Made by a program: the position numbers and the translations under genes
IMG/VR virus record: IMGVR_UViG_3300042305_002088
Location: 1-64,000 of that record
Length of the DNA: 64,000 nt
Strand: one strand, 5' to 3'
From: a virus
Notes under the pieces: generated by a model
Told to the model about the DNA's origin: nothing
What the model saw: the letters and a program-made list of their open reading frames with translations, nothing else
Databases searched by the model: none
Part shown: one piece after another, positions 11,119-31,637 of the stretch
Numbering within the stretch: position 1 is the stretch's first letter
Layout of the letters: every line of letters starts with the position of its first letter

Positions 11119-11547
11119 ATGAAATTTGATAGTCTTTTTAAAACCGTATTTCTTACCGAACAAGACGAAGTAGCTTTACCGGAAGATGATTTAGCACCTG
11201 TAGCAGACGAAACACCGGCTCCAGAATCTGATGGAGTTCCAATGCCTGACAATTATGATGTTGAACCAGCTCCTGTTGCTCAACCTGCTGGTGATGCCGG
11301 TTCAATTAAAAACTATATTATGAAATTAGATGAATTTGCTGATTCTTTAAACGGAGTTGATTCCGGTTCACTTCAGCAAATGGTAACCGACATGGACAGA
11401 GCTGGTTCATTGTTCCAAGGTATTTCTAGAGAAACTTCCTCCGATATTATTAAGCTTGCCGAACAGGCCAGACAATTAGCAGAAATCCTTAAGGGGTTTG
11501 TTATTAACTCTGCTAAACGTCAGAGAGATATTGCCGCCGGCGCCTAA
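11119..11547 (+). CDS. Putative capsid-targeted protein (acidic N-terminal region)
   Basis: A 142-residue protein. The N-terminus MKFDSLFKTVFLTEQ resembles T4 capsid-targeting peptides: a short amphipathic helix ending in LxE, the cleavage pattern of the gp21 prohead protease. Next comes an acidic Pro/Ala-rich linker (20-60), then a helical domain. No enzymatic motif is visible. It is grouped with seven other proteins here that share such an N-terminus. Confidence 0.6.
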   Translation: MKFDSLFKTVFLTEQDEVALPEDDLAPVADETPAPESDGVPMPDNYDVEPAPVAQPAGDAGSIKNYIMKLDEFADSLNGVDSGSLQQMVTDMDRAGSLFQGISRETSSDIIKLAEQARQLAEILKGFVINSAKRQRDIAAGA

Positions 11548-12803: not shown

Positions 12804-13352
12804 TTATCCTCCGTATAGTTTGGCTCCGCCAAAATCTGCTAAAGCTCCTAAAGCTTGTGCTGCATAACCAAGGCGGCTTTTACCTGGCTCTTTCTCGAGA
12901 GCATTAGCTACCAAGCCGTTTGTTACTTCCCACTGATTTTTATTTGTATACTTTACAATAACATCTCTTTCTTGAGCACCATTTTTGTTGACGCTTTTGT
13001 TGTTAAGAAAATCACGTAAATTTTTAGCCGGCTTCGGTGAAGCGCTTTCCCATAAATTTTTTAAAACATCTAAAATTAAAATATTTTTTCCAACTGTACG
13101 TGCATCTTGACCTGCGATATAACCTTTAGTAACAATAGGAAATATTTTATTAATATCCGATTCTGTAACTTCCCCTAAACCGAGTTCTTTATGTTTTGCT
13201 AAAATATCTTTAAACCAATCTGGAAAAACTATACCTTGTTGCGGTATTGGTGGTGTTGTCTGCGGTGGTAGCGGGGCACCAGCAGGCATGACAGTCGGTG
13301 TTGGTTTAGGCTGTTCTAGAACCAAATGTACTATTTTTGTAAAATTAAACAT
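12804..13352 (-). CDS. Putative capsid-targeted internal protein
   Basis: A 182-residue protein. N-terminus MFNFTKIVHLVLEQ is an amphipathic leader ending VLE-Q. A Pro-rich linker (15-40) and a helical/basic domain ending in Gly (KLYGG) follow. It is preceded by a late-type box. No enzymatic motif is visible. It most likely enters the prohead as an internal protein, by analogy with T4 IP proteins. Confidence 0.6.
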   Translation of the reverse strand: MFNFTKIVHLVLEQPKPTPTVMPAGAPLPPQTTPPIPQQGIVFPDWFKDILAKHKELGLGEVTESDINKIFPIVTKGYIAGQDARTVGKNILILDVLKNLWESASPKPAKNLRDFLNNKSVNKNGAQERDVIVKYTNKNQWEVTNGLVANALEKEPGKSRLGYAAQALGALADFGGAKLYGG

Positions 13353-13379: not shown

Positions 13380-14012
13380 TCACATACCAGCTAGCAAAGA
13401 ACCGTCTTCTTCATCAAAGAATTTACCAGACGGTTTAATATACAAAGGAATCTGTTCAATACGTAGATCTGGAGGACCTTCTAGAGTTATAACAGCCGGA
13501 CAATCTTCTTTAGGGAAGAAAATACCTTGCTGCTTTTCATATGTTCCAACAACAGCTCTAAAGAGATTATCGATTTCTTGACGATAAACAGGGTCAATGG
13601 CGCGCCCTTTTTTAGGCACGATAGCAATTTCTTCTCTTAAAGGAACATAAAAGATAATATCAAACACACGGATTGCTTCAAAGGCGATACGCTTTGCATC
13701 CATAATAAATTCATCTGACACTTTACCTTTTTCGTTAAGCCAGAGTGAATAAACAATATTATCAATAACACACCGATCAAATACTAAAAAATCATTACCT
13801 TCTGCGGAAGCTTTTTGTGTATCATCAATAATTGCATCGAGAATAGCACGTTGAGATTCCGCAGTACCATCTTCATTATTGGTAATTTTGCCGGTTTTAA
13901 TGAGTTTACGGTATGTAGACTTGACCTCTTTATACATTGGCCAACGCTTACAGAACTCTTTAATTAGTGTACTTTTTCCATTACACTGTGTACCCATGAA
14001 TGCAATTTTCAT
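13380..14012 (-). CDS. AAA_28/NadR-like P-loop kinase
   Basis: A 210-residue protein. The N-terminal P-loop is MGTQCNGKSTL (G-x5-GKST). FDRCVIDNIVYS (~99-110) is the DRC/DRS motif of nucleoside or nicotinamide-riboside kinases, and DIIFYVPLREE precedes a lid region. It starts 2 bases after queE and ends the queD-queE operon. A paralogue at 44083 lies between dpdN and queF. Its substrate may be a (deoxy)nucleoside monophosphate or ribonucleoside; a link with 7-deazaguanine metabolism is inferred from position only. Confidence 0.75.
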   Translation of the reverse strand: MKIAFMGTQCNGKSTLIKEFCKRWPMYKEVKSTYRKLIKTGKITNNEDGTAESQRAILDAIIDDTQKASAEGNDFLVFDRCVIDNIVYSLWLNEKGKVSDEFIMDAKRIAFEAIRVFDIIFYVPLREEIAIVPKKGRAIDPVYRQEIDNLFRAVVGTYEKQQGIFFPKEDCPAVITLEGPPDLRIEQIPLYIKPSGKFFDEEDGSLLAGM

Positions 14013-14014
14013 GA

Positions 14015-14773
14015 TTATACTTTAAGGGCTTTATTCCAGATTAGCAATTGCAGTCTTGGTGAAAAGTTAACATGCATAGCTTTTGCATATTCTGCTACCG
14101 CAGGTGCATTCTGTACATGCTCTTCTCTGGAACCACAACAAGGCATAAACCAGATTCGATGAAGCGGTACATTAATGCCTTTATCATCATTAACGTATTT
14201 TCGCCAAATCTCTTCAATATCTTTGTCAGAGTTGATAACAAATTTAAACCCTGAACCGTTTGTTACATGCCATTGAAGTGCTTCTGGCTTATAGGTCTTC
14301 TCTTCTGGATCTCCATTTGAGATAAGTTTAGGGGATGTAGTAAAGGTGGCTCTGAATTCATTACGCCATCTCTCAGAGGGAATCAAAGTAGCATTAGTTT
14401 CAAAATCAATACGTGATACAAAGTTATACCTCTCTTTAAAGGCTTCAATAAATTTAAGAAGCTGCTTTTCTTGAATGATGGGCTCACCACCTGTTAGTTT
14501 TAAAATTGCACCATGGCGAAGATGTTCGATATAGTTATTATCTTCCATCATCTGAAATACTTCAGCAAATGTTTTTTTGTTCTTAACAGACCAAGATACA
14601 AACGAATCACAACCATTAGGTGAATCTGGTGACGCAAATCCAATACAAGTTAAGTTACACATTGACATGCGCATAAACACAGAAGGCTGACCGACAAATT
14701 CACCTTCACCCTCAACTGTGTAAAATACTAAGTCGTCTGACAAGAACAATGTTTCTTTATTAATATCAATCAT
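14015..14773 (-). CDS. queE: QueE, 7-carboxy-7-deazaguanine synthase
   Basis: A 252-residue radical SAM protein. The YTVEGEGEFVGQPSVFMRMSMCNLTC start is characteristic of QueE. The cluster-binding Cys occur as C-x3-C, then an 11-residue insertion and a third Cys (NGCDSF), instead of the canonical C-x3-C-x2-C; such insertions are known in some QueE proteins. LTGGEPIIQ is the SAM-binding GGE motif. It converts 6-carboxytetrahydropterin to 7-carboxy-7-deazaguanine. It lies in an operon with queD. Confidence 0.9.
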   Translation of the reverse strand: MIDINKETLFLSDDLVFYTVEGEGEFVGQPSVFMRMSMCNLTCIGFASPDSPNGCDSFVSWSVKNKKTFAEVFQMMEDNNYIEHLRHGAILKLTGGEPIIQEKQLLKFIEAFKERYNFVSRIDFETNATLIPSERWRNEFRATFTTSPKLISNGDPEEKTYKPEALQWHVTNGSGFKFVINSDKDIEEIWRKYVNDDKGINVPLHRIWFMPCCGSREEHVQNAPAVAEYAKAMHVNFSPRLQLLIWNKALKV

Positions 14774-14776
14774 AAA

Positions 14777-14974
14777 TTATCCTCCAATTATAAATTTATA
14801 AAGTAGGGTACAGATTACAAGAGCAACCCAACCCAGTGGATTTAAAAATAATAAAACAAATCCTGCAAAAATCAAGGACACTAATACAGTTAAAAATTCC
14901 CAAAAGCCGATTTTCTTATCTTTTGGTACAACTTTTTCAAAGCTAGCATTGATTATTTCAAGACCGTTTTTCAT
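14777..14974 (-). CDS. Small membrane protein in the queD-queE operon
   Basis: A 65-residue protein from ATG 14972-14974; a GTG three codons earlier is possible. An N-terminal polar part is followed by two adjacent hydrophobic stretches (FLTVLVSLIFAGFVLLFL and WVALVICTLLYKFII). It overlaps queD by 17 bases and precedes queE by 3 bases, so it is co-translated with both. No family is recognised. Confidence 0.6.
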   Translation of the reverse strand: MKNGLEIINASFEKVVPKDKKIGFWEFLTVLVSLIFAGFVLLFLNPLGWVALVICTLLYKFIIGG

Positions 14975-15404
14975 ATATAGCACTGTTAAGTTCGTGTTCC
15001 CAAACTTCTACTTTCTCAACCCAGCAACGACCAACTGACATCTCCCGAATCATAGGATCAACAGCCTTAAAGCACCACTCAGCAGTCTTTTCAATTCCTA
15101 CACCATCCATAACTTTGAGAATACATCCCCCTTTAGCATCGAGTTGTTTAAATTCCTCAAGTAACGGATCATCTTTAGCAATACAAAGAGTGTGATCGAA
15201 CTGCTCTTGTAATACTCTTTTAACGTCTTTTAATCCGCCGAAATTAATAACCCAATTTTTATTATCTAAGCCAGTGCAGCCAAACCAAAACTTTGCTTTA
15301 AGCTGATAGCCATGAATGTACTTGCAGTGTGTGCCCTCAGCGCTCCACTGACGGAAGGCACAAGAGCCAAGTTCAATTATTTTAGTTGATTCGAATTTAA
15401 TCAT
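14958..15404 (-). CDS. queD: QueD-like 6-carboxytetrahydropterin synthase
   Basis: A 148-residue protein. The catalytic Cys and metal region reads SCAFRQW...THCKYIHGYQLKAKFWF, followed by NFGGLKDVKRVLQEQFDHTLCI (the D-H pair of the family) and a C-terminal Glu in WEHELNSA. Compared with canonical QueD, the first zinc His is replaced and HGH is HGY, which marks a divergent subfamily. It converts dihydroneopterin triphosphate to the QueE substrate, downstream of FolE (50440). Confidence 0.85.
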   Translation of the reverse strand: MIKFESTKIIELGSCAFRQWSAEGTHCKYIHGYQLKAKFWFGCTGLDNKNWVINFGGLKDVKRVLQEQFDHTLCIAKDDPLLEEFKQLDAKGGCILKVMDGVGIEKTAEWCFKAVDPMIREMSVGRCWVEKVEVWEHELNSAIYEKRS

Positions 15405-15718: not shown

Positions 15719-16330
15719 TTATTTCAACTTTTTATTAAACAGGTTATAGATACTTTGATCAAATTTACCGTAAAGATCAATAATAATTTGTTTTCTCTCT
15801 TGGTCTGAAACATGCTTATACATGTCTCTTATTTGAGTAGCACCGGTGACAGTTTTACCTAACACTTTAAAAGGGTTAACAGTAGCTACTTTAACATAGC
15901 CTTTATCCTTCATAGGTAGAAGCTGATTAGCATCTTCTAACCTTTGAAAGTAGCCAGGTGAGCCGTCTTTTTTGGTGTATGAAATTCTAGAAGCGTCTTT
16001 TTCAGATAAAGCGTATACAAGACTATCTTTATCTTGATTATATTTTTCTGAAATTTCTTTAGCCACGTAAGGTGACTTTACCTTTACAATTCTATCTCCA
16101 GGTATACCTAGTTTTTGTAAAATAAATTTACGCTCTTCAAACGTAAAAGGGGATAATGCATCTACTTTCTCAGAAGTAGCAATATAAACGTCTGAATTAG
16201 GAAACTCTTGTTTTAAAGAATTATAAAGCCCGGCATGTCCCTTATGTGCGGGTTGAAACCGGCCTGGGAAAATTACTACTACTTTACCGTCTCTTGTCTG
16301 CTCTGTAAAGAAACTATTAAAAGCTATCAT
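15719..16330 (-). CDS. HxGH nucleotidyltransferase with capsid-targeting-like N-terminus
   Basis: A 203-residue protein. After a leader MIAFNSFFTEQ (FTE-Q), the enzyme begins with VVVIFPGRFQPAHKGH. The GRFQP..HxGH motif (H29-x-x-H32) marks the cytidylyl-/adenylyltransferase superfamily (NMNAT, PPAT, CTP transferase). TGATQIRDM near residue 170 stands where the family has ISGTxxR. It transfers AMP or CMP to a phosphorylated acceptor; the acceptor is unknown. It overlaps the upstream ligase-like gene by 4 bases (ATGA). Confidence 0.75.
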   Translation of the reverse strand: MIAFNSFFTEQTRDGKVVVIFPGRFQPAHKGHAGLYNSLKQEFPNSDVYIATSEKVDALSPFTFEERKFILQKLGIPGDRIVKVKSPYVAKEISEKYNQDKDSLVYALSEKDASRISYTKKDGSPGYFQRLEDANQLLPMKDKGYVKVATVNPFKVLGKTVTGATQIRDMYKHVSDQERKQIIIDLYGKFDQSIYNLFNKKLK

Positions 16331-17580
16331 TTAAATTTATCCTCCTTAGAAATAGCAAAGTTAGCTCTAGAAAATTCTAATCTATCAACAAGTTTCACCA
16401 TATTACCAATTTTATCAACAGCAACAAACCCTTCACCAGGGGTAACCTTAAGTGTACCGTCAGGTTGTGTTAAAAATTGTTTCGTTTTAACCGCAGAAGA
16501 ATACTTGTTAAAGAATATCTTTTTAAGGTCAGCTAATTTTTTTGTTATGTTAAAAATGTTAATTACGGACATTTTGTTAGTATTAAAGAACTGAACCGTT
16601 TTATTTTTAGCATCTATTTTCTTCTGTCTACCAGCTTCAGTCTTCATCTTATCAACCTCTTTATCCATTCTAGTACTGTACCAGCTTATAAACTCATTAA
16701 AAGCTTCTTCTGGATCTTCGATAAATTTTCCTTGACGAATGAGTGTGTTAATAAAAGTGTTAGCTAAAATATAAAAGTTATTAGGTAAGGCTGTCCAATC
16801 TGTTACTCCCGAAGCTTTTTGTATCGAATTAACTGTTTCAATGACAGTTCTTTTTTCATCATCCGTTAATGTCACGGTACCAGAAACATCTTTAAATTTA
16901 GCATCATCAAACCATACTTCCGGTGTTTGATTAAACTCTGAAACATTGACATCAGCCGACTTCGAAAGCTGAGTTAAAGAAGGCCCTGTGTAACGAGTAT
17001 GAAACACAACACCGATTTGAGCGTTTTGAATTCTTTTACCGAGCTCAGAGTCAGCTTCAACGGCGTATGTAATAGTGTTGGGTTTAAAGGTGATTAGTTT
17101 TTCACCTTGAAAGTCTATTTGATTGAGAGTAGACTTATCAAACATAAAGTCACATTGATATACATTAGACTTTATGACTTTTGAAAGATACAAGAGAGCC
17201 ATTTTCATTTTTTCAGCTAAGCCTGGTGCTTGGCCGTAGTTAGTCTGAATATCATTAACCGTGTAGTTAATTTTTGGTGTCTTAGCCGCTATACTTTTTG
17301 TAGATACGAAAAACCTGTTATTTTCAGGGTTATAACCACAGATTATGGCAGGCGCGCCGTCGTATTTTACGGTTGTAAAAACACCAGAATCAGCGTTGCC
17401 GTTAAAAGCATCTGTAAGAGCATTAATAAAAGAGAGTGCTGTATCAAGTCCTTCCTTTTGACGAGTTAATATAAGCTCCTCTAAATGAGTGAGGTGTTTA
17501 ATAATACCTTCTTGTTGTTCAATGACAAGGTATTTACTAGTACTATCTTTATAAAAGCTATTAAAAGCTTGTTCGATCAT
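16327..17580 (-). CDS. Ligase-like nucleotidyltransferase (DUF6267-like), capsid-targeting-like leader
   Basis: A 417-residue protein. The first 23 residues contain an extended leader ending YLVIEQ. VKYDGAPAI (71-79) has the K-x-D-G motif I of DNA/RNA ligases and capping enzymes. Next come FVSTKS, an acidic DFMFD (144-148, motif III-like) and, far downstream, EGFV (383-386, motif IV-like) and VKLVDR (395-400, motif V-like). The long insertion between III and IV is atypical. It could ligate or adenylylate nucleic acid ends; activity is unproven. Transcribed from the late-type box at 17588. Confidence 0.65.
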   Translation of the reverse strand: MIEQAFNSFYKDSTSKYLVIEQQEGIIKHLTHLEELILTRQKEGLDTALSFINALTDAFNGNADSGVFTTVKYDGAPAIICGYNPENNRFFVSTKSIAAKTPKINYTVNDIQTNYGQAPGLAEKMKMALLYLSKVIKSNVYQCDFMFDKSTLNQIDFQGEKLITFKPNTITYAVEADSELGKRIQNAQIGVVFHTRYTGPSLTQLSKSADVNVSEFNQTPEVWFDDAKFKDVSGTVTLTDDEKRTVIETVNSIQKASGVTDWTALPNNFYILANTFINTLIRQGKFIEDPEEAFNEFISWYSTRMDKEVDKMKTEAGRQKKIDAKNKTVQFFNTNKMSVINIFNITKKLADLKKIFFNKYSSAVKTKQFLTQPDGTLKVTPGEGFVAVDKIGNMVKLVDRLEFSRANFAISKEDKFK

Positions 17581-17587
17581 AACGCTG

Positions 17588-17597
17588 TATTATTTAA
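17588..17597 (-). promoter_or_regulatory. Late-type promoter box
   Basis: TTAAATAATA on the minus strand, 7 bases before the ATG at 17580. It overlaps the 3' end of the upstream gene. Confidence 0.55.
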
Positions 17598-17958
17598 GCG
17601 TTAAAAGATAGCGTAGTTTATTAATAACAGCTAGAATTTCGTCTCTAATATTGAGACAATCAGTGTCCTTTACCGGGTCATGCATTTCAGCGAACGGACC
17701 AGATAGATAATCATTTAATTGAATAAGAATATCTTCAAGATCAATTTCGTCTTGATTTACTAAACCTAAATCGATTGGAGTCTCGAAAGTAATTCTACCG
17801 TATTTACCTTGATGTACTTCAACGAGGCTATCAATTAAATCGTCTAAATCATTATAAGCATTACCTAGAGCTTTATGAGCAGCATAGGAAAGTGTTTGCC
17901 AATGAAGAATTCTTAATTGGTTTTGTATTTTAAGAAGATTAACAATTGCTTTGTCCAT
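17590..17958 (-). CDS. DUF5856-like, ferritin/Dps-like helical protein
   Basis: A 122-residue protein. The pattern QNQLRILHWQTLSYAAHKALGNAYNDLDDLIDSLVEVHQG is Dps-like: HWQT..Y..H..L, then Y..LDDLID.LVE, giving His, Asp and Glu residues where Dps has its ferroxidase ligands. T4-like phages of cyanobacteria encode a similar small family. It begins at the stop of the 79-residue gene (1-base overlap) and probably shares the late promoter at 18201. Iron binding or virion association is inferred. Confidence 0.6.
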   Translation of the reverse strand: MDKAIVNLLKIQNQLRILHWQTLSYAAHKALGNAYNDLDDLIDSLVEVHQGKYGRITFETPIDLGLVNQDEIDLEDILIQLNDYLSGPFAEMHDPVKDTDCLNIRDEILAVINKLRYLLTLK

Positions 17959-18197
17959 TAAACAGCAGGTTTAGGCTGAGTTGCAACACCGTTTTGTGGA
18001 TGTGTAACGCCTTGCATAATTGTTGCAAGAATATCTTTAATCTGTTTCGGATCGTTAATTTTAGATAACTGATCAGCTAATTTTTCAACTTCTTGCTGTT
18101 GAGTTGGATTGAGAACGGGTTTTGGTTGATTAGGTTGCTGCGGCGCCGCAGGAAGCTGTTCTTCTATTCTTTTTAAAACGGCATCGAATTTACTCAT
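17958..18197 (-). CDS. Small Pro/Gln-rich protein with capsid-targeting-like leader
   Basis: A 79-residue protein. N-terminus MSKFDAVLKRIEEQ is amphipathic with IEE-Q. A Pro/Gln linker (PAAPQQPNQPKPVLNPTQQQ) and a short helix follow. There is no enzymatic motif. The late-type box at 18201-18210 is 3 bases before the ATG. Confidence 0.6.
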   Translation of the reverse strand: MSKFDAVLKRIEEQLPAAPQQPNQPKPVLNPTQQQEVEKLADQLSKINDPKQIKDILATIMQGVTHPQNGVATQPKPAV

Positions 18198-20174: not shown

Positions 20175-20429
20175 TTATTTCTTTTTAGACCATTTAATTC
20201 TCTTCGGTCCTTTTTTCTTAGCCTTTGAACCAGTGCACTGCGACAGGGTAGGACGACAAGCAGGGTAACCCTTTGAAGGGCCCTTTGTACCTTTTTCTCT
20301 GCCGCAAGGAACAATCTTACCAGGCTTTGATTTCTTGCAATTAACCCAACCCTTACCTTTATTTCTTTTAAACCACTTATGAAGAGATTCTTCATTTAAT
20401 AGTTCTAGAACTGTATTAGTAAAGTTCAT
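20175..20429 (-). CDS. DUF5872-like small basic protein with capsid-targeting-like leader
   Basis: An 84-residue protein. MNFTNTVLELLNEE (LNE-E) precedes SLHKWFKRNKGKGWVNCKKSKPGKIVPCGREKG and GYPACRPTLSQC. The gWV.C...PCGR...yPACRPT..QC pattern is that of DUF5872, found in phages and giant viruses. Four Cys could bind metal. The Lys-rich tail ends WSKKK. The late-type box at 20433 is 3 bases before the ATG. Confidence 0.7.
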   Translation of the reverse strand: MNFTNTVLELLNEESLHKWFKRNKGKGWVNCKKSKPGKIVPCGREKGTKGPSKGYPACRPTLSQCTGSKAKKKGPKRIKWSKKK

Positions 20430-22945: not shown

Positions 22946-24006
22946 TGCATTTTAGTTCTAACAAAGTAGCTTGTATATCTGATATACATTTAGGAGTACA
23001 CCAGAATGCGCAAACCTGGCATAATATCGCTATAGATTTTGCAAGGTGGTTTGATAAAGAGCTCAAACTTCGAGGTATTAAAGATGTTATTATAGCTGGA
23101 GATATATTTCATAATAGACATGAAATTGGTGTTAACACTATTCACTGTGCATATCAGTTCTTCGATATTTTAAAGAATTATAATATTCTTGCTATTACCG
23201 GTAATCACGACTGTTATTATAAAGATAAGTCAGATATTAACTCTATTTCTATTCTTGATGGGTATAAAAATGTAACAGTTTTTAAAGAGCTTAAAACAGT
23301 AAATTTAAACAGTAAAGTATTTAGCTTTTGCCCATGGGGCGTACCTGTAGAAGATATACCACCTTGTGATGTTGTTATTGGGCATTTTGAGATTCTTAAT
23401 TTTAAGATGAACGCCCATAAGGTTTGTGATCATGGAGTAGAGAGTGAATCATTATTAGATAAAACTAAGCTTGTTGTTACCGGGCATTTTCATTGCCGGG
23501 ATCATAGAAAATATAAAAATAACAAATCGATTATTTATCTTGGATCCCCACATGAACTAGACTTCGGTGATAGAGATCAAGTTAAGGGATTTACTATTCT
23601 TAATACTGATGATCTTTCATTAGAGCTTGTCGAAAATAACGTTACACCGAAACATAAAAAAATAAAAATATCTGAGCTTTTAGATGGTAAGATTGCATTA
23701 GAAAATATCTCAGAAGAACTACAAAATAATTTTGTCAGTCTTTGTGTTGATAGAAACGTTAACGAGCAGATATTAAACTTAATGCTTTCTAAGTTTAATC
23801 AATATAAACCTAAGCATGTAAGAACAGATTTTAATATTTTTGAATCCGTACAGTTATCTGCAACAGAATTAAATGAAGTTAGTATTGATATTGATACAGC
23901 ATTGCACGAATTTGTCAACCTTTTAGATACACCCGTGCCTAAAAAAGATATTCTTGATAAATGTATTGATCTTTACAGAATTTCACAGACAGTAAATGAG
24001 CACTAA
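22945..24006 (+). CDS. 47: gp47/SbcD-like recombination endonuclease
   Basis: A 353-residue Mre11-type phosphoesterase: SDIHLGVH (~13-20), AGDIFHNRHE, ITGNHDCYY, VIGHFEI and VTGHFHCR supply the metal ligands in order. It partners with gp46 (Rad50-like, 37064) to resect DNA ends. The ATG overlaps the gp55 stop by one base. In T4 genes 46 and 47 are close together; here about 13 kb separates them. Confidence 0.93.
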   Translation: MHFSSNKVACISDIHLGVHQNAQTWHNIAIDFARWFDKELKLRGIKDVIIAGDIFHNRHEIGVNTIHCAYQFFDILKNYNILAITGNHDCYYKDKSDINSISILDGYKNVTVFKELKTVNLNSKVFSFCPWGVPVEDIPPCDVVIGHFEILNFKMNAHKVCDHGVESESLLDKTKLVVTGHFHCRDHRKYKNNKSIIYLGSPHELDFGDRDQVKGFTILNTDDLSLELVENNVTPKHKKIKISELLDGKIALENISEELQNNFVSLCVDRNVNEQILNLMLSKFNQYKPKHVRTDFNIFESVQLSATELNEVSIDIDTALHEFVNLLDTPVPKKDILDKCIDLYRISQTVNEH

Positions 24007-24790
24007 AATTGGAGTTGGAATTATCACATGTGATAGACCTGATTACCTTAAAAAACTAATCAAGTCTTTAGAGGGTATTTCTGTTTCTGATTTTTATATT
24101 ATAAACGACGGTGAAAAACAAATTAAAGGTGGTAAATTAAAAACACATAACAATACACCCCCTAAACAAGGAGTAGGTAAAGCTAAAAACCAAGCATTAA
24201 AATATCTTAAAGACAGCGACTATATTTTTCTTATAGAGGACGATATAGTTATTAAAGATAAAACTGTTTTCGAAAAGTATATAGAAGCTTCTAAGCTATC
24301 AGGCATACAACATTTTAACTTTGCTTTTCACGGCACAGATAATTACACACCTGATGGTTCACCTGCAGTACGTCTTAAACTGGATTATTCTCCAACAGTT
24401 TCAGTGTGTTTGTATCCTAATCTTTACGGTGCGTTTTCTATGTACACAAGAGAATGCATAAAAACAGTTGGTTTAATGGATGAATTTTATTACAATGCTA
24501 TGGAGCATGTAGATCATACTGCTGAAATTATTAAAGCAGAAATGCATCCGCCATTTCGTTGGTTTGCAGACATTACAGATAGCAACAAATACATTGAAGA
24601 AATTGATAGAGCTCACTCTGGGTCTGAAATTCGTAGAGATCAAAAATGGATAGAAAACTTCCATAAAGCAGCAGACCACTTTGTAGAAAAATTTGGTTTT
24701 GATGTTCGTAACCCGCATGCGGCAACAGCTTCTAAAGAAGATACTATAAACACCATAAAACAGATAAGGAAACAATATGGACAAGGGTAA
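23996..24790 (+). CDS. GT2-like glycosyltransferase
   Basis: A 264-residue protein. VGIITCDRPDYLKKLIKSL at the N-terminus and IFLIEDDIVIKD (~79-90), a DxD-like EDD, are typical of GT-A family 2 enzymes. C-terminal HVDHTAEI...WFADITDSNKY is shared with the next gene, showing a tandem duplication. It overlaps gene 47 by 11 bases, so the island is physically fused to the recombination operon. Donor and acceptor are unknown. Confidence 0.8.
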   Translation: MSTKIGVGIITCDRPDYLKKLIKSLEGISVSDFYIINDGEKQIKGGKLKTHNNTPPKQGVGKAKNQALKYLKDSDYIFLIEDDIVIKDKTVFEKYIEASKLSGIQHFNFAFHGTDNYTPDGSPAVRLKLDYSPTVSVCLYPNLYGAFSMYTRECIKTVGLMDEFYYNAMEHVDHTAEIIKAEMHPPFRWFADITDSNKYIEEIDRAHSGSEIRRDQKWIENFHKAADHFVEKFGFDVRNPHAATASKEDTINTIKQIRKQYGQG

Positions 24791-25553
24791 GATAGGGGTA
24801 GGTGTAACAACTTATAATTCTGAAGAGTATTATAAAGCTCTTTATAATTCATTACCTTTAGATAAGATTGATGTTTTAGTTACCGTTAATGGAGGGGATA
24901 GATATAAAGACAAATATAAAGGTAATTGGATACAACACTCTGAGAACGTTTATCCGTCAGTATGTAGAAACGATTGTATAAACTTCTTACTTCAACGAAA
25001 CTGTGAACATATCTTTATTATTGAAGATGATATGATTTTAAAATCTGAAGATATATTTCAAAAATATATACAAGCTTCTAAAGAATCGGGATTAAAATAC
25101 TTTTCATTTGTTTCAACGTCTTGGGAATCCGGCAACCCTGGTAAACGAACACCCCGTCTTACAGTTGAGTACAAAAATAATGTTAGCGTATCGTTCTTCC
25201 AGAATATGTGTAATGAGTTCACCTATCATCACAACTCTTGTTATGAAAAGACAGGACTATATGATACTAACTACCGAGACCCCTGGGATATTGACATGAC
25301 TTACAGAGAGTCCCAGCAGGACTATGCAGCTCCCTTTTGGTGGTTTGCTGATATTACCGGATCTGATAAATTAATAATGAATAACCCTGAAGCTGTTTCC
25401 CGACTTCAAGGAGAACGCACTGATGGTTCTAGAGAACAGCGAATTCAAAAAGAGTGGGAATATTTTTTTAAAAAACATGGTTGTCATGTAACCCAAATAC
25501 CTAACGTTTCAAAGGAAGAAATTATAGCTAAACTAAAGAGGTTAAAGTCATGA
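24777..25553 (+). CDS. GT2-like glycosyltransferase (paralogue of preceding gene)
   Basis: A 258-residue protein. VGVTTYNSEEYYKALYNSL, IFIIEDDMILKSEDIFQKYIQASKESGLKYF (~79-109) and WWFADITGSDKL align with the upstream enzyme. Differences in the acceptor half suggest a different linkage. It overlaps both neighbours by 14 and 4 bases. Confidence 0.8.
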   Translation: MDKGKIGVGVTTYNSEEYYKALYNSLPLDKIDVLVTVNGGDRYKDKYKGNWIQHSENVYPSVCRNDCINFLLQRNCEHIFIIEDDMILKSEDIFQKYIQASKESGLKYFSFVSTSWESGNPGKRTPRLTVEYKNNVSVSFFQNMCNEFTYHHNSCYEKTGLYDTNYRDPWDIDMTYRESQQDYAAPFWWFADITGSDKLIMNNPEAVSRLQGERTDGSREQRIQKEWEYFFKKHGCHVTQIPNVSKEEIIAKLKRLKS

Positions 25554-27202
25554 AAATTTCCATAGGTATTAACGGATTTAAAAATTATGAAACTCTTGAA
25601 AAGAGAGAAAAATTCTGTATTGACGCATTATTAAAAATAAAACAAGATAATGTAACCTTGTACAATATATGCTTCGATAATGAAAATATAGAGTATAAAA
25701 ACTTCACTACACTTAACAAACTTACAAAAAAATCTAATAAACTTATTCATGAATATTTTCAACATGAGGGTTTAACTAACGAATATAATCTTCGCAAACA
25801 AGAAATAGATAATAACAACAAAGAATTACCTACTGTTAAAGAAATTTTTGATGTACTAGCTAGTACAGACTGCGACTACTTTCTTTTCTTAAACAATGAT
25901 ATTATTTTATCGAATAGAATTTTTAAAGAAATTGAAGATGGTATAGAGTGTTACCCGATATCAAGAATGCATATCTTTGATATTGAAAACCTAAACGATA
26001 CACCGAAGCTTGAATCTTATTCAGTACACGGGTTTGATGCTTTTTTAGTTAAAAAAGAAACCTGGCTTAAAATTCGTAATAATTTTGAAGATTTAATTTT
26101 AGGGAGATTTTATTGGGATACATACTTTGCAACAATGTTTAACTTGCTCTGTAAATGTAAAAATATTAATAAATTACCTCCTGCTTGCTTTCATATAGAA
26201 CATAATAGTAACTCTAGTGATAATACAATTGAAAACTACTATAATGAAGATGTATTTAAACGCAATATGATAATAGGTCATTTATGGTTTAGTTATGTAC
26301 AAAATATTCTTCTAAAAAGACCGACTGTAAATAACTGTAAATGGTATCAACCGTTCCCTAACGAGTTAGAATTAGAAAAACAACACTTCGATCAATTAAA
26401 TCAAATACAGCTTGTTAACCCTAATTTTCAAAAACAGCAGGTAACCGAAAAGCAAGATTTTGATCTTTTTATACCAGTAGCTCCTAAAGATGAAATAAAA
26501 TTGCCATATGTTATTGAATATGCAAATAAACATCTCAAACATAAGAAAATTTTTGTCTGTTCTCCTCATTATATAACTAACAAAATTACTGATAGTAATA
26601 TTACATATATTAATGATAAAGATGTTCTTGATGTTCCAGACAGATCATTTATATCTTTTAGACCAAACTGGATATATCAACAATTTTTAAAACTCTTCTT
26701 TAATCAAAGTGAATCGGAATATTATTTTGCTCTCGATGCCGATACAATCATTACAAAATCACTCCCTTTATTTGAAAAAGAACACCCTATATGGTATTAT
26801 GGCTGGAAACAAAATCATTTTCCTTATTTCTTGTTTAACAAGAAGTTCTTTAATTTAAATAAATCCCTCGATCATACCGGTATAGGAGATCTAGGGCTTT
26901 TTAATAAAAAAATAATACAAACATTTTTAAACTATACCGGAACTGAAACACCTTTAAAGTTACTTAAAATGATAGGACCTAAAACTAATGTAGTATTTCA
27001 TTTTTCTGAGTATGAAACTTATGCCAATTTTTGTAATACATATTACCCCGATCTCTATGTTTTTAAACACCTAGAACAGCAAAACAGCGGTAGAGATTTA
27101 AATCAAGGTCAAGATTGGACACAAAAAGATATTATTACAACAATTGAAAATTATAAAAATTCAAATAAATCTATACTATCTCTCCATTCATGGAAACTAT
27201 AA
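25550..27202 (+). CDS. Two-domain glycosyltransferase (GT2-like plus DUF6492-like)
   Basis: A 550-residue protein. The N-terminal half has YFLFLNNDIILSNRIF, a GT-A core with NND. The C-terminal half begins near residue 300 with FDLFIPVAPKDE and has YYFALDADTIITKSLPLF, a second DxD (DAD), in the style of DUF6492 proteins. Either it arose by fusion or it makes two successive transfers. It overlaps the next gene by 13 bases. Confidence 0.75.
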   Translation: MKISIGINGFKNYETLEKREKFCIDALLKIKQDNVTLYNICFDNENIEYKNFTTLNKLTKKSNKLIHEYFQHEGLTNEYNLRKQEIDNNNKELPTVKEIFDVLASTDCDYFLFLNNDIILSNRIFKEIEDGIECYPISRMHIFDIENLNDTPKLESYSVHGFDAFLVKKETWLKIRNNFEDLILGRFYWDTYFATMFNLLCKCKNINKLPPACFHIEHNSNSSDNTIENYYNEDVFKRNMIIGHLWFSYVQNILLKRPTVNNCKWYQPFPNELELEKQHFDQLNQIQLVNPNFQKQQVTEKQDFDLFIPVAPKDEIKLPYVIEYANKHLKHKKIFVCSPHYITNKITDSNITYINDKDVLDVPDRSFISFRPNWIYQQFLKLFFNQSESEYYFALDADTIITKSLPLFEKEHPIWYYGWKQNHFPYFLFNKKFFNLNKSLDHTGIGDLGLFNKKIIQTFLNYTGTETPLKLLKMIGPKTNVVFHFSEYETYANFCNTYYPDLYVFKHLEQQNSGRDLNQGQDWTQKDIITTIENYKNSNKSILSLHSWKL

Positions 27203-28047
27203 AAACAATATACGTTCATTTAACATTTAAAAGTCTTCCTTTTTCGAAAGAATTGACAAATTCTGATTTTGTTTATAGCGAGGTACCAGCTTATACCTAT
27301 GTAAGCATAGAACAAACAAAAAAAGTTACAGATAGTGATTGTATTTTGCTAACTAACAATAATATTGATGAATATTACGATGATGTGCAAGAGTTTTTTG
27401 AACTTTGTAAAAATGGTTTTCCCTCCTTTTATAAGGACCCTTTTTGGTTACTAACACTTTTACGTCTGTACATAGTTTATCTTTATTGTGCTAAACATAA
27501 TATTAACAGTTTTGTGCATTTAGAAAATGATAACTTAGTTTATAAAAACTATGACTGTTTAAAAAAATTACCTGACGGTTGTTATTTTACAAAAGTAGGC
27601 CCTGAATGTGGTTCAGCAGGGTTTATGTTTTGCAATAATCTTGAAAGTTTTGAAATAGCAATTAACTGTTTAAAACATTTACTTAAAAAAGGGGAATATA
27701 ATATACGACCTTATACAGGTTACGACTTTTTATCTGAAATGATTTTAATAGATATATTAGTGAGAGGTAATAAAGCAAAATACCTACCGCTCACACCTAA
27801 TGATCAATACTACGATATAACTAATTGTGTTTTTGACGGCGCTTCTTACGGTCAATATATCGGTGGTACCAATAATAACCACGGCCCGGGCTGGTTTGGA
27901 TTAAACCACTACCTTGGCCAGCTATTCAATCAAAGTAGAGTTCAAATTATATTTGATAAAAACATCCCTTATACTATTATAGATAATACAAAAGCAGATA
28001 TTTTTAACCTGCATATTCATAGTAAACAATTACAAAAATATGTATAA
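27190..28047 (+). CDS. Glycosyltransferase-like protein
   Basis: A 285-residue protein. FVHLENDNLVYKNYDCL (~110-126) provides an END motif at the place of a GT-A DxD, and GGTNNNHGPGWFGLNHYLGQ lies near the C-terminus. It resembles capsular polysaccharide/GT32-type proteins but without a firm family match. It sits within the overlapping run of sugar genes. Confidence 0.6.
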   Translation: METIKTIYVHLTFKSLPFSKELTNSDFVYSEVPAYTYVSIEQTKKVTDSDCILLTNNNIDEYYDDVQEFFELCKNGFPSFYKDPFWLLTLLRLYIVYLYCAKHNINSFVHLENDNLVYKNYDCLKKLPDGCYFTKVGPECGSAGFMFCNNLESFEIAINCLKHLLKKGEYNIRPYTGYDFLSEMILIDILVRGNKAKYLPLTPNDQYYDITNCVFDGASYGQYIGGTNNNHGPGWFGLNHYLGQLFNQSRVQIIFDKNIPYTIIDNTKADIFNLHIHSKQLQKYV

Positions 28048-28645
28048 TGTTGATCAGACAATTCGCAAAAGACCTTACCTCCTTATAAAGGAAGCACTAA
28101 GTAATTTATCTATTACGAGTTCTACTATAGTAGAAATTGGGTCAATGAGAAAACCATGTAACCATGATTTAGATACTTTCAATCATGAATGTTGCAACGA
28201 TGGTCATAGTTCTTTACTTTTAGCTCGAGCTGCAAAAGAGTTTCATACTGTAGATATTGACATGGAGTGTGCAAAACTAACCCGCTCCGAATTGAAAAAA
28301 CATAATCTATGGTCAAAGTCAAATGTGTATTGTGGAGACGGTATAATGTTTTTAAAAGATTTTGATAAACCGATAGACTTTCTATATCTAGATGCTTGGG
28401 ATGTTGAATATCCTAATCATGCAGAAATGCATCTTGAAGCATTTAAAATTGCTGAAAATAAACTTAATGAAAAATCGGTTATACTAATAGACGATACAGA
28501 TATTGGTTACAGCCTTGAAAAAGGGTTTCACAATGATGAAGAATGTTTAGGCGGAAAGGGTAGATTATTAATCCCGTTCTTGCAGCAGAAAGATAATTTT
28601 AAATTACTTTTTAAAGGTAGACAAACCTGCTTTATAAAAAAATAA
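28040..28645 (+). CDS. SAM-dependent methyltransferase
   Basis: A 201-residue class I fold. IVEIGSMRKP (motif I region), FHTVDIDMECAKLTRSEL (acidic end of strand 2), VYCGDGIMFLKDF and FLYLDAWDVEYPNHAEMHLEAF (motif IV) are visible, close to Methyltransf_24-type enzymes that methylate sugars or small molecules. A target on a glycan is inferred from the island. Confidence 0.75.
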   Translation: MYNVDQTIRKRPYLLIKEALSNLSITSSTIVEIGSMRKPCNHDLDTFNHECCNDGHSSLLLARAAKEFHTVDIDMECAKLTRSELKKHNLWSKSNVYCGDGIMFLKDFDKPIDFLYLDAWDVEYPNHAEMHLEAFKIAENKLNEKSVILIDDTDIGYSLEKGFHNDEECLGGKGRLLIPFLQQKDNFKLLFKGRQTCFIKK

Positions 28646-28646
28646 T

Positions 28647-29345
28647 ATGAATAACCCTTTTAACTTTTTTGATAAAATATTTTGTATTAATTTAAAAACT
28701 CGCCCAGACCGGTGGCAAGAGTGTTTAGGTATATTTGAACAACTAAAGATTCAAAATAAAGTTGAAAGGTTTGAAGCTGTAGATTTATCTAATGATACTT
28801 CGATTATAGAGATGCATCGAGGTCGTTGTGGCTGTGCACAATCACATTTGGATATTATAAAAGACGCTAAAAAAAATAACTATCAAAATATTTTAATTTT
28901 TGAAGATGATATAAAACTACATTCTGATACCGAAACATTGTTTAGCGTTATGTCAGAGAGTATAAAAGAATTACCACCTGATTGGGAAATTTTTTACCCT
29001 TCAGCAAATCCTCCAAACCATTGGGAAAGTCTTACTAACTATAGCAAAAATTTATGTCAGGTAAAAGCTGCTTTTACGACCCATAGTATTGCAATAAACG
29101 GTAATATTTTTGATCTTTTATTAGAACGATTTAATAGCTATGGCGATGTTAATAACTTCATCCATAGAGCTGTAGCTGTTGATAATTTTTATACAGAATC
29201 AGCATGTAGTAGGGGTAAAGTATTTTTATCTAAAAAACTTCTATTTACCCAAAGAAACAATTACTCAAATATCGATTTGTGCGATAGAGATATTAATAAT
29301 ATTATTATCACTACTTACACACAAAACCCGTTATTAGAACCATAA
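28647..29345 (+). CDS. GT25-family glycosyltransferase
   Basis: A 232-residue protein. FDKIFCINLKTRPDRWQECLGIF at the N-terminus, GRCGCAQSHLDIIKDAKKN and ILIFEDDIKLH (EDD) are hallmarks of the LPS glycosyltransferase family 25. It starts one base after the preceding stop. Confidence 0.85.
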   Translation: MNNPFNFFDKIFCINLKTRPDRWQECLGIFEQLKIQNKVERFEAVDLSNDTSIIEMHRGRCGCAQSHLDIIKDAKKNNYQNILIFEDDIKLHSDTETLFSVMSESIKELPPDWEIFYPSANPPNHWESLTNYSKNLCQVKAAFTTHSIAINGNIFDLLLERFNSYGDVNNFIHRAVAVDNFYTESACSRGKVFLSKKLLFTQRNNYSNIDLCDRDINNIIITTYTQNPLLEP

Positions 29346-29346
29346 T

Positions 29347-30015
29347 ATGGAAAATATTACTGCAGTTTTTACGTCTTGTGGTCGTTGGGATTTGTTAGAA
29401 CGAACGCTTACATCATTTATAAATACTGTTTCGTCGCCAGATATAAAATATATTGTTATTGATAATTCAACTCTTGCTACTGCTAATGATGAGATCAATA
29501 AAATACTTGATAAAAATAAAACTAAAGGACAGGTCATTATTAATGAAACCAATATCGGTCAAGTATCATCTATAGACAAAGCATACTCATTTGTTAAGAC
29601 AGACTACATTTTTCATAGTGAGGATGATTGGTTTTATACAGGGAGTAATTACCTTGAGCAATCCTTAGACGTTTTGTGTAGTGTGCCACAGATCGTAAAT
29701 GTAAATATACGGGCAAGGTTCGATGGAGAAAAAGGCGGTGATGCCCCTATAGGGCCACTTTTACAAACCTCTAAAGGAACAAAATATCACTTATATGAAC
29801 TAAACTACCTTAATATGTGGCACGGTTTTAGCTGGAACCCTGGATTACGTAAAACATTAGACTATAATATTATAGGTAGAAGTTATAAAAAAATAGGACA
29901 AGAGCAGCACGTGGGCCAAGTTTATAAAGATCTAGGTTATCGAGCTGCATGCCTAGAAGGCCAATATGCTAAACATATCGGTACAAATAGTTCTACACCA
30001 CTTTCTAATCAGTAA
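29347..30015 (+). CDS. GT2-like glycosyltransferase
   Basis: A 222-residue protein. ITAVFTSCGRWDLLERTLTSF and YIFHSEDDWFYTGSNYLEQSL (EDD) mark a GT-A enzyme. WHGFSWNPGLRKTLDYNIIGR shapes the acceptor site. It lies in the tandem sugar-gene run. Confidence 0.8.
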   Translation: MENITAVFTSCGRWDLLERTLTSFINTVSSPDIKYIVIDNSTLATANDEINKILDKNKTKGQVIINETNIGQVSSIDKAYSFVKTDYIFHSEDDWFYTGSNYLEQSLDVLCSVPQIVNVNIRARFDGEKGGDAPIGPLLQTSKGTKYHLYELNYLNMWHGFSWNPGLRKTLDYNIIGRSYKKIGQEQHVGQVYKDLGYRAACLEGQYAKHIGTNSSTPLSNQ

Positions 30016-30018
30016 AAT

Positions 30019-30657
30019 ATGAGTAGTTTTAATATTAACAAAGCTAAAGAAATAATAAATGATGCTGAAAATATAATCATTTTTGATATTGGAGCACACA
30101 ATTTTGAAGATTCAAAAATATTAAAATCTGCTTTTCCAAATTCAGTTGTTTATGCATTTGAGCCTGACATTAAAAATATACAATATTATTCCTCTTCAGC
30201 AGAACAATACGGGGTAAAAGTAATTAATCTCGCCTTATCAGACAGTACAGGTGAAACAACCTTTTACAATAGTGAAACACTTAACGGCTGTGAATGGCTT
30301 TGCTCTGGCTCTATCTTAAAACCAATAACTATAAAAAATACTAATGAAGGTTTAAACCATAAAGGGTTATTATATAATTTAACGGGTTATAAAATACAAA
30401 CAACAACTTTTAAAGATTTTTGCGATGCTCAAAACATATCACCAACTATAGTACATATGGACGTACAAGGAGCTGAAACAAAAATTATGAAAGGAATAGG
30501 TAATTATAGACCTAAAATAATTTTTGCCGAAACTTGCGAATTTGATACATATGAAACAGGAACAAATATACAGCAATTTGATTCAATTATGGAAGATTTA
30601 GGTTATAAAATTTGGGAAAGGTTACAGTATGATACGTTTTATGTTTATAGTAGATAA
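30019..30657 (+). CDS. FkbM-family methyltransferase
   Basis: A 212-residue protein. IIFDIGAHNFEDSK (motif I), VYAFEPDIKNIQYY, VINLALSDSTGETTFYNS and HMDVQGAETKIMKGI follow the FkbM pattern closely. FkbM enzymes O-methylate sugars or polyketides. It is the last gene of the first half of the island; a gap with a promoter-like box follows. Confidence 0.85.
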   Translation: MSSFNINKAKEIINDAENIIIFDIGAHNFEDSKILKSAFPNSVVYAFEPDIKNIQYYSSSAEQYGVKVINLALSDSTGETTFYNSETLNGCEWLCSGSILKPITIKNTNEGLNHKGLLYNLTGYKIQTTTFKDFCDAQNISPTIVHMDVQGAETKIMKGIGNYRPKIIFAETCEFDTYETGTNIQQFDSIMEDLGYKIWERLQYDTFYVYSR

Positions 30658-30672
30658 ATGATTTTTATTCTA

Positions 30673-30678
30673 TATAAT
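30673..30678 (+). promoter_or_regulatory. Early-type -10 box inside the sugar island
   Basis: TATAAT ends 11 bases before the ATG at 30690. The 32-base gap at 30658-30689 is by far the largest between genes of the island, so the second half may be transcribed separately. Confidence 0.4.
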
Positions 30679-30689
30679 ATGTTTTATTA

Positions 30690-31637
30690 ATGAAAACAGT
30701 ACTAATAACAGGGGGAAGTGGGTTTTTAGGTCGTAATCTTGCATTACATTTAAAAGACTCATATAAAGTTTTTTTAGCGTCTCGTAACAACAAACAAAAT
30801 ATTTTAGCTTCTAAGGTTACAGGGTGTGAGTCTTTACCTCTAGATGTAGCAAATATTGAATCGGTAAGAGATGCTATTAAACTTACTAAACCGAATATTA
30901 TTATTCATGCTGCAGCTACAAAATTTGTAGATCTATCAGAAAAATATCCTAACGAAACTATCGATATTAACGTAACCGGCTCACAAAATGTTGCTCGAGT
31001 TGCAATGGAAAATGATGTTGAGTATGTTTTAGGAATATCTACTGATAAAGCATGCCCGCCCATTAGAAATATTTACGGTCTATCGAAGGCAACAATGGAG
31101 CGTCTTTTTTGTCTACTTAACAAAAAAGCAAACACCCAATTTGCATGCGTGAGATATGGTAATGTGGCATGGTCAACTGGCTCGGTACTTCCAATTTGGA
31201 AAAAAATGCATGAAGAAACAGGCCTACTACAAACCACTGGACCTGAGATGAGAAGATTTTTCTTTTCTATACAAGACGCTGTAAATCTTGTTATAACTGC
31301 AATTGATAATAAAGATATTATTCATGGACAGGTATTATCACGTGTAATGAAGTCTGCTCAAATACAAGATATTTTAGACGTCTGGACAAAGCATTTAGGG
31401 GGTAAGTGGGAAAGAATTGCAGGTCGACCTGGTGAAAGAGATGACGAGTTTTTAGTTGGAGAGACTGAACTGAATTATTGTCAGGTTATTAACTTTAATA
31501 ACATTAAGCATTTTCTTCTTAGTCCAAACACTAAAGTAGAAACCCCATACCCAAACATCTTTACATCTAAAGAGGCAGAAAGATTGTCAGAAGCAGAAAT
31601 ATTAGAGTTATTAAACTCTGTACCTGATATTTTATAA
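30690..31637 (+). CDS. NDP-sugar epimerase/dehydratase (extended SDR)
   Basis: A 315-residue protein. The NAD(P)-binding GGSGFLG (8-14), LGISTDKACPP (catalytic T/D/K region) and YGLSKATMERL (Y-x3-K) are those of polysaccharide-type nucleotide-sugar dehydratases and epimerases such as the PseB/CapD group. It should supply an activated deoxysugar or epimerised sugar to the island's transferases. Confidence 0.85.
   Translation: MKTVLITGGSGFLGRNLALHLKDSYKVFLASRNNKQNILASKVTGCESLPLDVANIESVRDAIKLTKPNIIIHAAATKFVDLSEKYPNETIDINVTGSQNVARVAMENDVEYVLGISTDKACPPIRNIYGLSKATMERLFCLLNKKANTQFACVRYGNVAWSTGSVLPIWKKMHEETGLLQTTGPEMRRFFFSIQDAVNLVITAIDNKDIIHGQVLSRVMKSAQIQDILDVWTKHLGGKWERIAGRPGERDDEFLVGETELNYCQVINFNNIKHFLLSPNTKVETPYPNIFTSKEAERLSEAEILELLNSVPDIL

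What the first reader, a model, noticed from the sequence alone, without database searches (positions are those of the whole stretch)
15719..17580. Possible virion-delivered pair: ligase-like KxDG enzyme plus HxGH nucleotidyltransferase
Seen: two genes overlapping by 4 bases, both with capsid-targeting-like leaders and a shared late promoter. One has KYDG, DFMFD, EGFV and VKLVD motifs of covalent nucleotidyltransferases with a 235-residue insertion; the other is a GRFQPAHKGH adenylyl/cytidylyltransferase. Together they could repair or tag nucleic acid ends, or build a dinucleotide such as NAD at the moment of infection. I know of no described two-enzyme injected system of this kind.
Basis: inference. 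Interest (0 to 1): 0.75.

Follow-up and report, generated by a model that had tools for sequence, protein, structure and literature searches.

The report
Head-targeted phage enzyme pair, often fused
Two adjacent genes of a T4-like phage, a ligase-like enzyme of an unstudied family and an NAD-synthase-like nucleotidyltransferase, form a recurrent and often fused module that carries the head-packaging tags of injected phage proteins, and may repair or cap RNA (or rebuild NAD) as infection starts.

Summary
The pair is real. ORF1 (16327-17580, minus strand, 417 aa) is Pfam DUF6267, unknown function. ORF2 (15719-16330, 203 aa) is an HxGH adenylyl/cytidylyltransferase with an NMNAT/PPAT fold. They overlap by 4 bases. 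K72, D74, G75, E383, G384 and K396 are invariant in 80 of 80 relatives, which supports a covalent nucleotidyltransferase active site. The fold search was not significant, so "ligase-like" rests on motifs, topology and weak enrichment.

The partnership is far from unique. DUF6267 occurs in more than 450 phage records, mostly cyanophages. Of 71 loci with sequence downstream, 41 have an HxGH/TxGH enzyme fused (6) or close behind (35), and fusions occur in both orders. A second KxDG family is fused to the same enzyme in every complete ORF but one, often with a kinase.

Capsid-targeting leaders are statistically supported, and published proteomics find leader-bearing relatives of ORF2 in virions. 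DUF6267 itself has not been shown in virions. No late promoter was found.

Best reading: an injected end-processing module, probably RNA repair. NAD+ restoration is the main rival. Substrates cannot be settled here.

The parts
16327..17580 (-). ORF1, 417 aa, DUF6267: predicted ligase/capping-type covalent nucleotidyltransferase with N-terminal leader
   Evidence: Pfam PF19782 E=5.8e-99; PHROG 455; AF2 pLDDT 85.4, pTM 0.79
15719..16330 (-). ORF2, 203 aa, HxGH adenylyl/cytidylyltransferase (NMNAT/PPAT fold) with N-terminal leader
   Evidence: PF01467 E=1.5e-8; Foldseek to CoaD and NadM, best E=2.4e-5
17518..17580 (-). Putative capsid-targeting leader of ORF1, residues 1-21, predicted cut ...YLVIE|QQ
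   Evidence: pLDDT<50 for residues 1-27; [VIL]E|Q kept in most close relatives; family leader enrichment
16301..16330 (-). Putative capsid-targeting leader of ORF2, residues 1-10, MIAFNSFFTE|Q
   Evidence: conserved in close relatives; matches T4-type CTS pattern
17356..17367 (-). Motif I KYDG (K72-G75), predicted nucleotidyl-lysine
   Evidence: K72, D74, G75 in 80/80 relatives
16492..16863 (-). Helical insertion, residues about 240-363, between motif IIIa and motif IV regions
   Evidence: AF2 secondary structure; shortened in natural relatives
16381..16434 (-). Motifs IV and V, EGFV ... VKLVDR (383-400)
   Evidence: E383, G384, V386, K396, R400 invariant in 80/80
16235..16264 (-). GRFQPAHKGH, HxGH motif of ORF2 (residues 23-32)
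   Evidence: alignment A3
16327..16330 (-). 4-base overlap (ATGA) of ORF1 stop and ORF2 start: translational coupling likely
17590..17958 (-). Upstream operon gene, DUF5856, context only
   Evidence: PF19174 E=4.9e-16; PHROG 858
17958..18197 (-). Upstream 79-aa ORF with leader-like start MSKFDAVLKRIEE|Q, context

Best explanation
ORF1 and ORF2 are two halves of one enzyme module that T4-like phages load into the head and inject. ORF1 (DUF6267) is predicted to form a covalent lysine-nucleotide intermediate at K72, as ligases and capping enzymes do. ORF2 joins an NMP to a phosphate acceptor. Most likely the pair processes and seals or caps broken RNA ends, such as tRNA cut by host defence nucleases, in the first minutes of infection. 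Shown: the genes, invariant motifs, leaders as a statistical pattern, recurrent adjacency and fusion. Inferred: packaging of ORF1, catalysis, substrate and the RNA-repair role. Rough confidence by step: one functional module 0.9; leaders mean packaging 0.8; ORF1 in the covalent nucleotidyltransferase superfamily 0.75; nucleic-acid end repair as the role 0.4.
For: Fusion and adjacency: DUF6267 and the HxGH/TxGH enzyme are one polypeptide in S-PM2d138, in L052, L058, L059, L061 (DUF6267 first) and in L055, L056, L062-L064 (NTase first). Of 71 loci with room downstream, 6 are fused and 35 have the NTase within 1.5 kb, 21 of these with gaps of 0 or less. PHROG 455 spans both domains. Independent recurrence: a second KxDG family (EKLDG, MNLEV, EGIVF, K[FL]TG) is fused to an HxGH/GPHH NTase in 24 of 25 ORFs that do not start at a contig edge. 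The two nearest phage relatives of ORF2, Mel-JY01 and LR756508, are such fusions. Repair context: 18 of those 25 ORFs carry a P-loop kinase motif, and Pfam calls it AAA_33/zeta-like where scanned. Two carry a GS-x-SDxDL motif typical of Pol-beta nucleotidyltransferases (Pfam only E=0.1). Leader-bearing zeta/AAA_33-type kinases, weakly matching PHROG polynucleotide kinase (2e-6, 3e-6), directly follow DUF6267 in L069 and L111, and a HAD nucleotidase follows in L069. Fold: the first out-of-family BFVD hit is an iridovirus polynucleotide kinase/ligase (E=3.9e-3), with RNA ligases further down. Capping enzyme, tRNA ligase Trl1 and the NHEJ ligation complex appear in the PDB top 50, none significant. 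Delivery: virion-detected NTases of S-SM1, S-SZBM1 and S-CREM2 all start with a leader (MKKFSAFLNEA, MRFRQFIIEA, MKNFSSFLTEA).
Against: No significant structural or profile match of DUF6267 to a solved ligase; profile comparison with T4 Rnl2 not significant. Homology of DUF6267 to the second KxDG family is not demonstrated: 20 of 80 column shuffles score as well. DUF6267 was not among virion proteins of S-SZBM1 (SSZBM1_141 absent from Table 1), where it has no leader. In 30 of 71 loci no NTase was found within the flank. S-CREM2 has the NTase without DUF6267 beside it, and jumbo coliphages and RaK2 have a leaderless NTase next to Dam with no DUF6267 detected. ORF2 matches NMNAT models best, which fits NAD synthesis as well.
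Confidence: 0.42

Rival explanations
1. Injected NAD+ restoration. ORF2 is an NMN adenylyltransferase that rebuilds NAD+ at once on infection, against NAD-depleting defences or to feed the host; ORF1 supports it, for example by consuming or recycling NAD+ as an AMP donor.
For: Best sequence matches of ORF2 are NMNAT models (PRK01153 2.4e-5) and NadM structures. Cyanophage virion papers already propose NMNAT and NAD (PMC9602691, PMC10665884). NadV/NadM/NadR phage NAD pathways are known (PMC9503650).
Against: No equivalog cut-off is reached: scores about 13-24 bits against cut-offs of 100-450. PPAT is an equally good structural match. No NadV-like gene was noted in the window, although PMC9503650 reports that every NadM phage has NadV. 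It does not explain why the recurrent partner is a KxDG enzyme.
Confidence: 0.25
2. The pair acts on the incoming phage DNA: sealing nicks or adenylylating/capping DNA ends to protect or circularise the genome.
For: Ligase-type motifs; late-gene style leaders; NTase beside Dam in jumbo phages. DUF6267 lies by gp41, uvsX and mazG in cyanophages.
Against: The window phage encodes its own replication and repair genes and no end-specific context was found. Kinase and Pol-beta-like partners fit RNA repair at least as well.
Confidence: 0.13
3. Ordinary cytosolic auxiliary metabolism: the proteins are expressed late and only contaminate virions; leaders are incidental.
For: Authors of two proteome papers state that carry-over after CsCl is possible. 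DUF6267 not detected in S-SZBM1 virions. Several DUF6267 genes lack a leader.
Against: Leader enrichment in DUF6267; virion-detected NTases of three phages carry the leader, in independent studies.
Confidence: 0.12
4. DUF6267 has lost catalysis and works as a nucleotide-binding or scaffold protein in the head core.
For: Foldseek to catalytic ligases not significant; motif V lacks the second lysine of classical KxK (sequence).
Against: Strict conservation of K72, D74, G75, E383, G384, K396 over about 25-97% identity, hard to explain without catalysis.
Confidence: 0.08

Closest known systems
DUF6267 (PF19782) / T4-GC 71 of cyanophages
   Same: ORF1 is a full-length member; same neighbour as in S-SZBM1, P-HM1 and S-SM1
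   Different: The family is of unknown function and no paper in the library names it; this clade adds a leader and the GRFQPAHKGH subtype of partner
T4-GC 190 'cytidylyltransferase'/NMNAT-like virion proteins of S-SM1, S-SZBM1, S-SCSM1, S-CREM2
   Same: HxGH/TxGH nucleotidyltransferase with capsid-targeting-like leader (seen in S-SM1, S-SZBM1, S-CREM2); in S-SM1 and S-SZBM1 it sits right after DUF6267
   Different: ORF2 is a different subfamily, its nearest phage relatives being Mel-JY01 and LR756508 at 35-39%; published work treats the enzyme alone and proposes NAD synthesis
T4 internal head proteins (Alt, IPI-IPIII) with capsid targeting sequences
   Same: Short N-terminal leader ending near a prohead-protease-like xxE site; delivery with DNA (PMC9026906)
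   Different: Enzymes are ligase-like and HxGH, not ADP-ribosyltransferase; the window leaders end in E|Q; virion presence untested here
T4 RNA ligase 2 and ATP-grasp RNA ligases
   Same: KxDG-type motif I, EGxV motif IV, similar strand order (inference)
   Different: No significant sequence or profile match; helical insertion; conserved HxxHxE upstream; HxGH partner
Polyvalent injected proteins (Iyer et al. 2017, PMC5512222)
   Same: Large multi-domain forms with the same modules (L062-L064, L179, L206) carry leaders or several enzyme domains
   Different: ATP-grasp RNA ligase domains are mentioned there only as absent from association with 2H domains

Membership tests
DUF6267 (PF19782) | Profile match above curated cut-off over full length | tested here: met
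   332.4 bits against cut-off 27, residues 28-412
Covalent nucleotidyltransferase (ligase/capping) superfamily | Invariant KxDG lysine plus motif IV EGxV and motif V lysine in order | tested here: met
   80/80 relatives; order I-III-IIIa-IV-V on strands of AF2 model
Covalent nucleotidyltransferase (ligase/capping) superfamily | Significant fold match to a solved member | tested here: inconclusive
   No PDB match with E<=0.001; ligase/capping entries present at E about 1.5-2.7; BFVD kinase/ligase E=3.9e-3
Covalent nucleotidyltransferase (ligase/capping) superfamily | Lysine-NMP intermediate | not testable with these tools
   Needs biochemistry
T4 RNA ligase 2 family | Sequence/profile homology to Rnl2 | tested here: not met
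   hhalign probability 0.35-0.68%, wrong register; no Pfam RNA_ligase hit among the 25 listed families for 49 members at E<=10
HxGH nucleotidyltransferase superfamily (CTP_transf_like) | HxGH motif, Rossmann-type fold, C-terminal [ST]xxxIR signature | tested here: met
   Foldseek 47 PDB hits at E<=0.001; TGATQIR/SASQIR conserved
NMN adenylyltransferase (NadM) | NCBIfam equivalog cut-off | tested here: not met
   PRK01153 24 bits of 127; TIGR01527 18.5 of 181
T4-type capsid-targeted internal protein | N-terminal CTS-like leader with protease-like site | tested here: met
   pattern-level only
T4-type capsid-targeted internal protein | Presence in virion | not testable with these tools
   Published for NTase relatives only; DUF6267 absent from the S-SZBM1 list
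Polyvalent injected proteins | Several unrelated enzymatic domains in one injected polypeptide | tested here: not met
   The window pair are two separate proteins; fused multi-domain forms exist only in relatives

The most novel reading that the evidence does not exclude
T4-like phages of sea and fresh water inject a ready-made RNA-repair machine, built from a KxDG ligase (DUF6267 or its analogue), an HxGH nucleotidyltransferase and, in relatives, a kinase, nucleotidase and Pol-beta enzyme, delivered with head-packaging tags, so that RNA cut by host suicide nucleases is mended from the first moment of infection.
Probability: 0.3. Interest if true: 0.85.

Novelty: new variant of a known kind. 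Interest (0 to 1): 0.6.

Why it matters
DUF6267 is in several hundred sequenced phage genomes, mainly cyanophages, and has no known function. Tying it by repeated gene fusion to a nucleotidyltransferase that others have detected in virions gives a testable function for a near-core cyanophage gene. It also suggests why NMNAT-like enzymes keep turning up in cyanophage particles: as half of a KxDG/HxGH module rather than as a lone NAD enzyme. If the module repairs RNA, it would be an injected counter-defence distinct from T4's RNA repair genes, which are expressed after infection.

Tried and rejected
Late promoter: TATAAATA/ATAAATA scan, rarer than chance and none adjacent. Sequence search of the PDB with the DUF6267 profile: only low-complexity helical matches. 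Pfam scan of 49 DUF6267 members at E<=10: no ligase family among the 25 listed. hhalign of DUF6267 against T4 Rnl2 and against the second KxDG family: not significant, shuffles score as well, so common ancestry of the two KxDG families is not claimed. S-PM2 p138/p139 as separate genes: rejected as a frameshift in the old record, since the later record has one 591-aa fused ORF. E. coli jumbo phages as a model for the pair: they hold the NTase, but DUF6267 was not detected in them.

Full report
What is there. On the minus strand, ORF1 (16327-17580, 417 aa) and ORF2 (15719-16330, 203 aa) overlap by 4 bases. The window is part of a 103,278-base IMG/VR virus record with T4-type genes; the Gp23 head-protein family matches near its end. 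ORF1 is Pfam DUF6267, unknown function (E=5.8e-99); ORF2 is CTP_transf_like (1.5e-8). Downstream are QueD, QueE and a P-loop kinase; upstream are a DUF5856 protein and a small leader-bearing ORF.

Motifs. Across 80 DUF6267 sequences (about 25-97% identical to the window's), K72, D74, G75, E383, G384, V386, K396 and R400 never change; H29 and H32 never change where the N-terminus is present (77 rows). AlphaFold2 with 49 sequences gives pLDDT 85.4, pTM 0.79. Motif I follows strand 67-71, motif III-like DFMFD is on strand 140-148, IIIa-like VVFHT on 189-198, motif IV on 385-389 and V on 394-397. Between IIIa and IV sits a helical bundle at about 240-363. This order fits the ligase/capping nucleotidyltransferase domain (established knowledge), but full-length Foldseek finds no significant PDB match. 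In the viral library the first match outside the family is a polynucleotide kinase/ligase (E=3.9e-3, probability 0.41), with annotated RNA ligases below it. I read this as support for the superfamily, not proof. Homology to T4 Rnl2 is not supported by profile comparison.

ORF2. AlphaFold2 pLDDT 87.0, pTM 0.82. Foldseek gives phosphopantetheine and NMN/NaMN adenylyltransferases, best E=2.4e-5, 47 hits at E<=0.001. NCBIfam places it nearest NMN adenylyltransferase but far below any equivalog cut-off. The acceptor is therefore unknown.

The module. tblastn finds DUF6267 in 456 phage records, nearly all cyanophages, plus Pelagibacter, Methylophilales, Stenotrophomonas and Vibrio phages. In S-SZBM1, P-HM1 and S-SM1 the next gene is the 'cytidylyltransferase' T4-GC 190. 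In the resequenced S-PM2 the two are one 591-aa protein. Among IMG/VR loci, fusions occur as DUF6267-NTase (L052, L058, L059, L061) and as NTase-(other domains)-DUF6267 (L055, L056, L062-L064). Of 71 loci with at least 2.5 kb downstream, 6 are fused, 35 have the NTase within 1.5 kb and 30 have none detected. In L024 an NTase of a different subtype (GRYNPPTTGH) occupies the same slot in the same operon, ahead of QueD, QueE and the kinase.

A second KxDG family, first met in Microcystis phage Mel-JY01 and the 484-kb phage LR756508, carries EKLDG, MNLEV, VFHG, EGIVF and K[FL]TG in the same order, with a GHMNHPFDD start reminiscent of HLxHLED. Of 25 ORFs not starting at a contig edge, 24 are fused to the HxGH/GPHH NTase; 18 also carry a kinase motif, and two a GS-x-SDxDL motif typical of Pol-beta enzymes. 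Common descent of the two KxDG families could not be shown; their partnership with one NTase type stands either way. The two phage records nearest to the window's ORF2 are exactly these fusions.

Packaging. DUF6267 proteins carry an N-terminal pattern like T4 capsid-targeting sequences in 41 of 69 cases against 57 of 584 control ORFs (related sequences are not independent). T4 CTS are about 10 residues and are cut after xxE by the prohead protease (PMC9026906, PMC5694885). In the window, leader-like ORFs at 11119-11547, 12804-13352, 15719-16330, 17958-18197 and ORF1 itself all have E-Q at the predicted cut. Virion-detected NTases of S-SM1, S-SZBM1 and S-CREM2 begin MKKFSAFLNEA, MRFRQFIIEA and MKNFSSFLTEA (S-SZBM1 sequence). 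In S-SZBM1 the DUF6267 neighbour lacks a leader and was not detected. The authors of two papers caution that carry-over after CsCl is possible.

Function. The partner set in relatives (kinase, HAD nucleotidase, Pol-beta-like domain, KxDG enzyme) resembles the syntax of RNA-repair systems as described for jumbo phages (PMC7824862), so injected RNA end repair is my leading reading. NAD+ restoration, already proposed for cyanophage virion NMNAT-like proteins (PMC9602691, PMC10665884), is the main rival. It explains ORF2 alone but not the KxDG partner.

Limits. No coordinates of the models could be examined, so active-site geometry was not checked. Leaders are pattern matches. No enzymatic activity or virion content of this phage is known.

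Noticed in passing
window 14015-15404 (-) and 50440-51105 (+): QueE-like and QueD-like genes in the same operon, and a GTP-cyclohydrolase-like ORF elsewhere (by eye), suggest a 7-deazaguanine (DNA modification or tRNA) pathway.
   Followed up: partly
window 11119-11547, 12804-13352, 17958-18197, 20175-20429: Further small ORFs with capsid-targeting-like leaders (FLTEQ, LVLEQ, RIEEQ, LLNEE): possible set of head-packaged proteins with a phage-specific E|Q cut.
   Followed up: partly
L062:1325-4135: One polypeptide joins an HxGH nucleotidyltransferase, a SET domain (PF00856, E=3.6e-7) and DUF6267: a phage protein with a protein-methyltransferase-like domain.
   Followed up: no
L236:1622-5230 and L233: 1203-aa protein with leader, GPHH nucleotidyltransferase, Zn_protease/retropepsin-like domain (PF05618), Pol-beta-like stretch and KxDG domain.
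   Followed up: partly
L206, L179, L236, L056: In many fusions HxGH has become GPHH (GRFQPFGPHH/GRFQPMGPHH), a changed active-site motif that may alter or abolish catalysis.
   Followed up: no
window 17590-17958 (-): DUF5856 protein (PHROG 858, annotated starvation-inducible regulator) sits between a leader ORF and DUF6267.
   Followed up: no
window 13380-14012 (-) and 44083-44631 (+): Two P-loop kinases; the first is AAA_28, the second matches the NadR kinase region only weakly (E=0.016), so a nicotinamide riboside kinase role is open.
   Followed up: partly
AJ630128.1 103025-104804: Old S-PM2 record splits the fused DUF6267-nucleotidyltransferase gene into p138 and p139 by an apparent frameshift; LN828717.1 has it whole.
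   Followed up: yes
window 23996-37032 (+): Long run of glycosyltransferase, methyltransferase, epimerase and nucleotidylyltransferase-like ORFs (by eye), a sugar-modification cluster.
   Followed up: no
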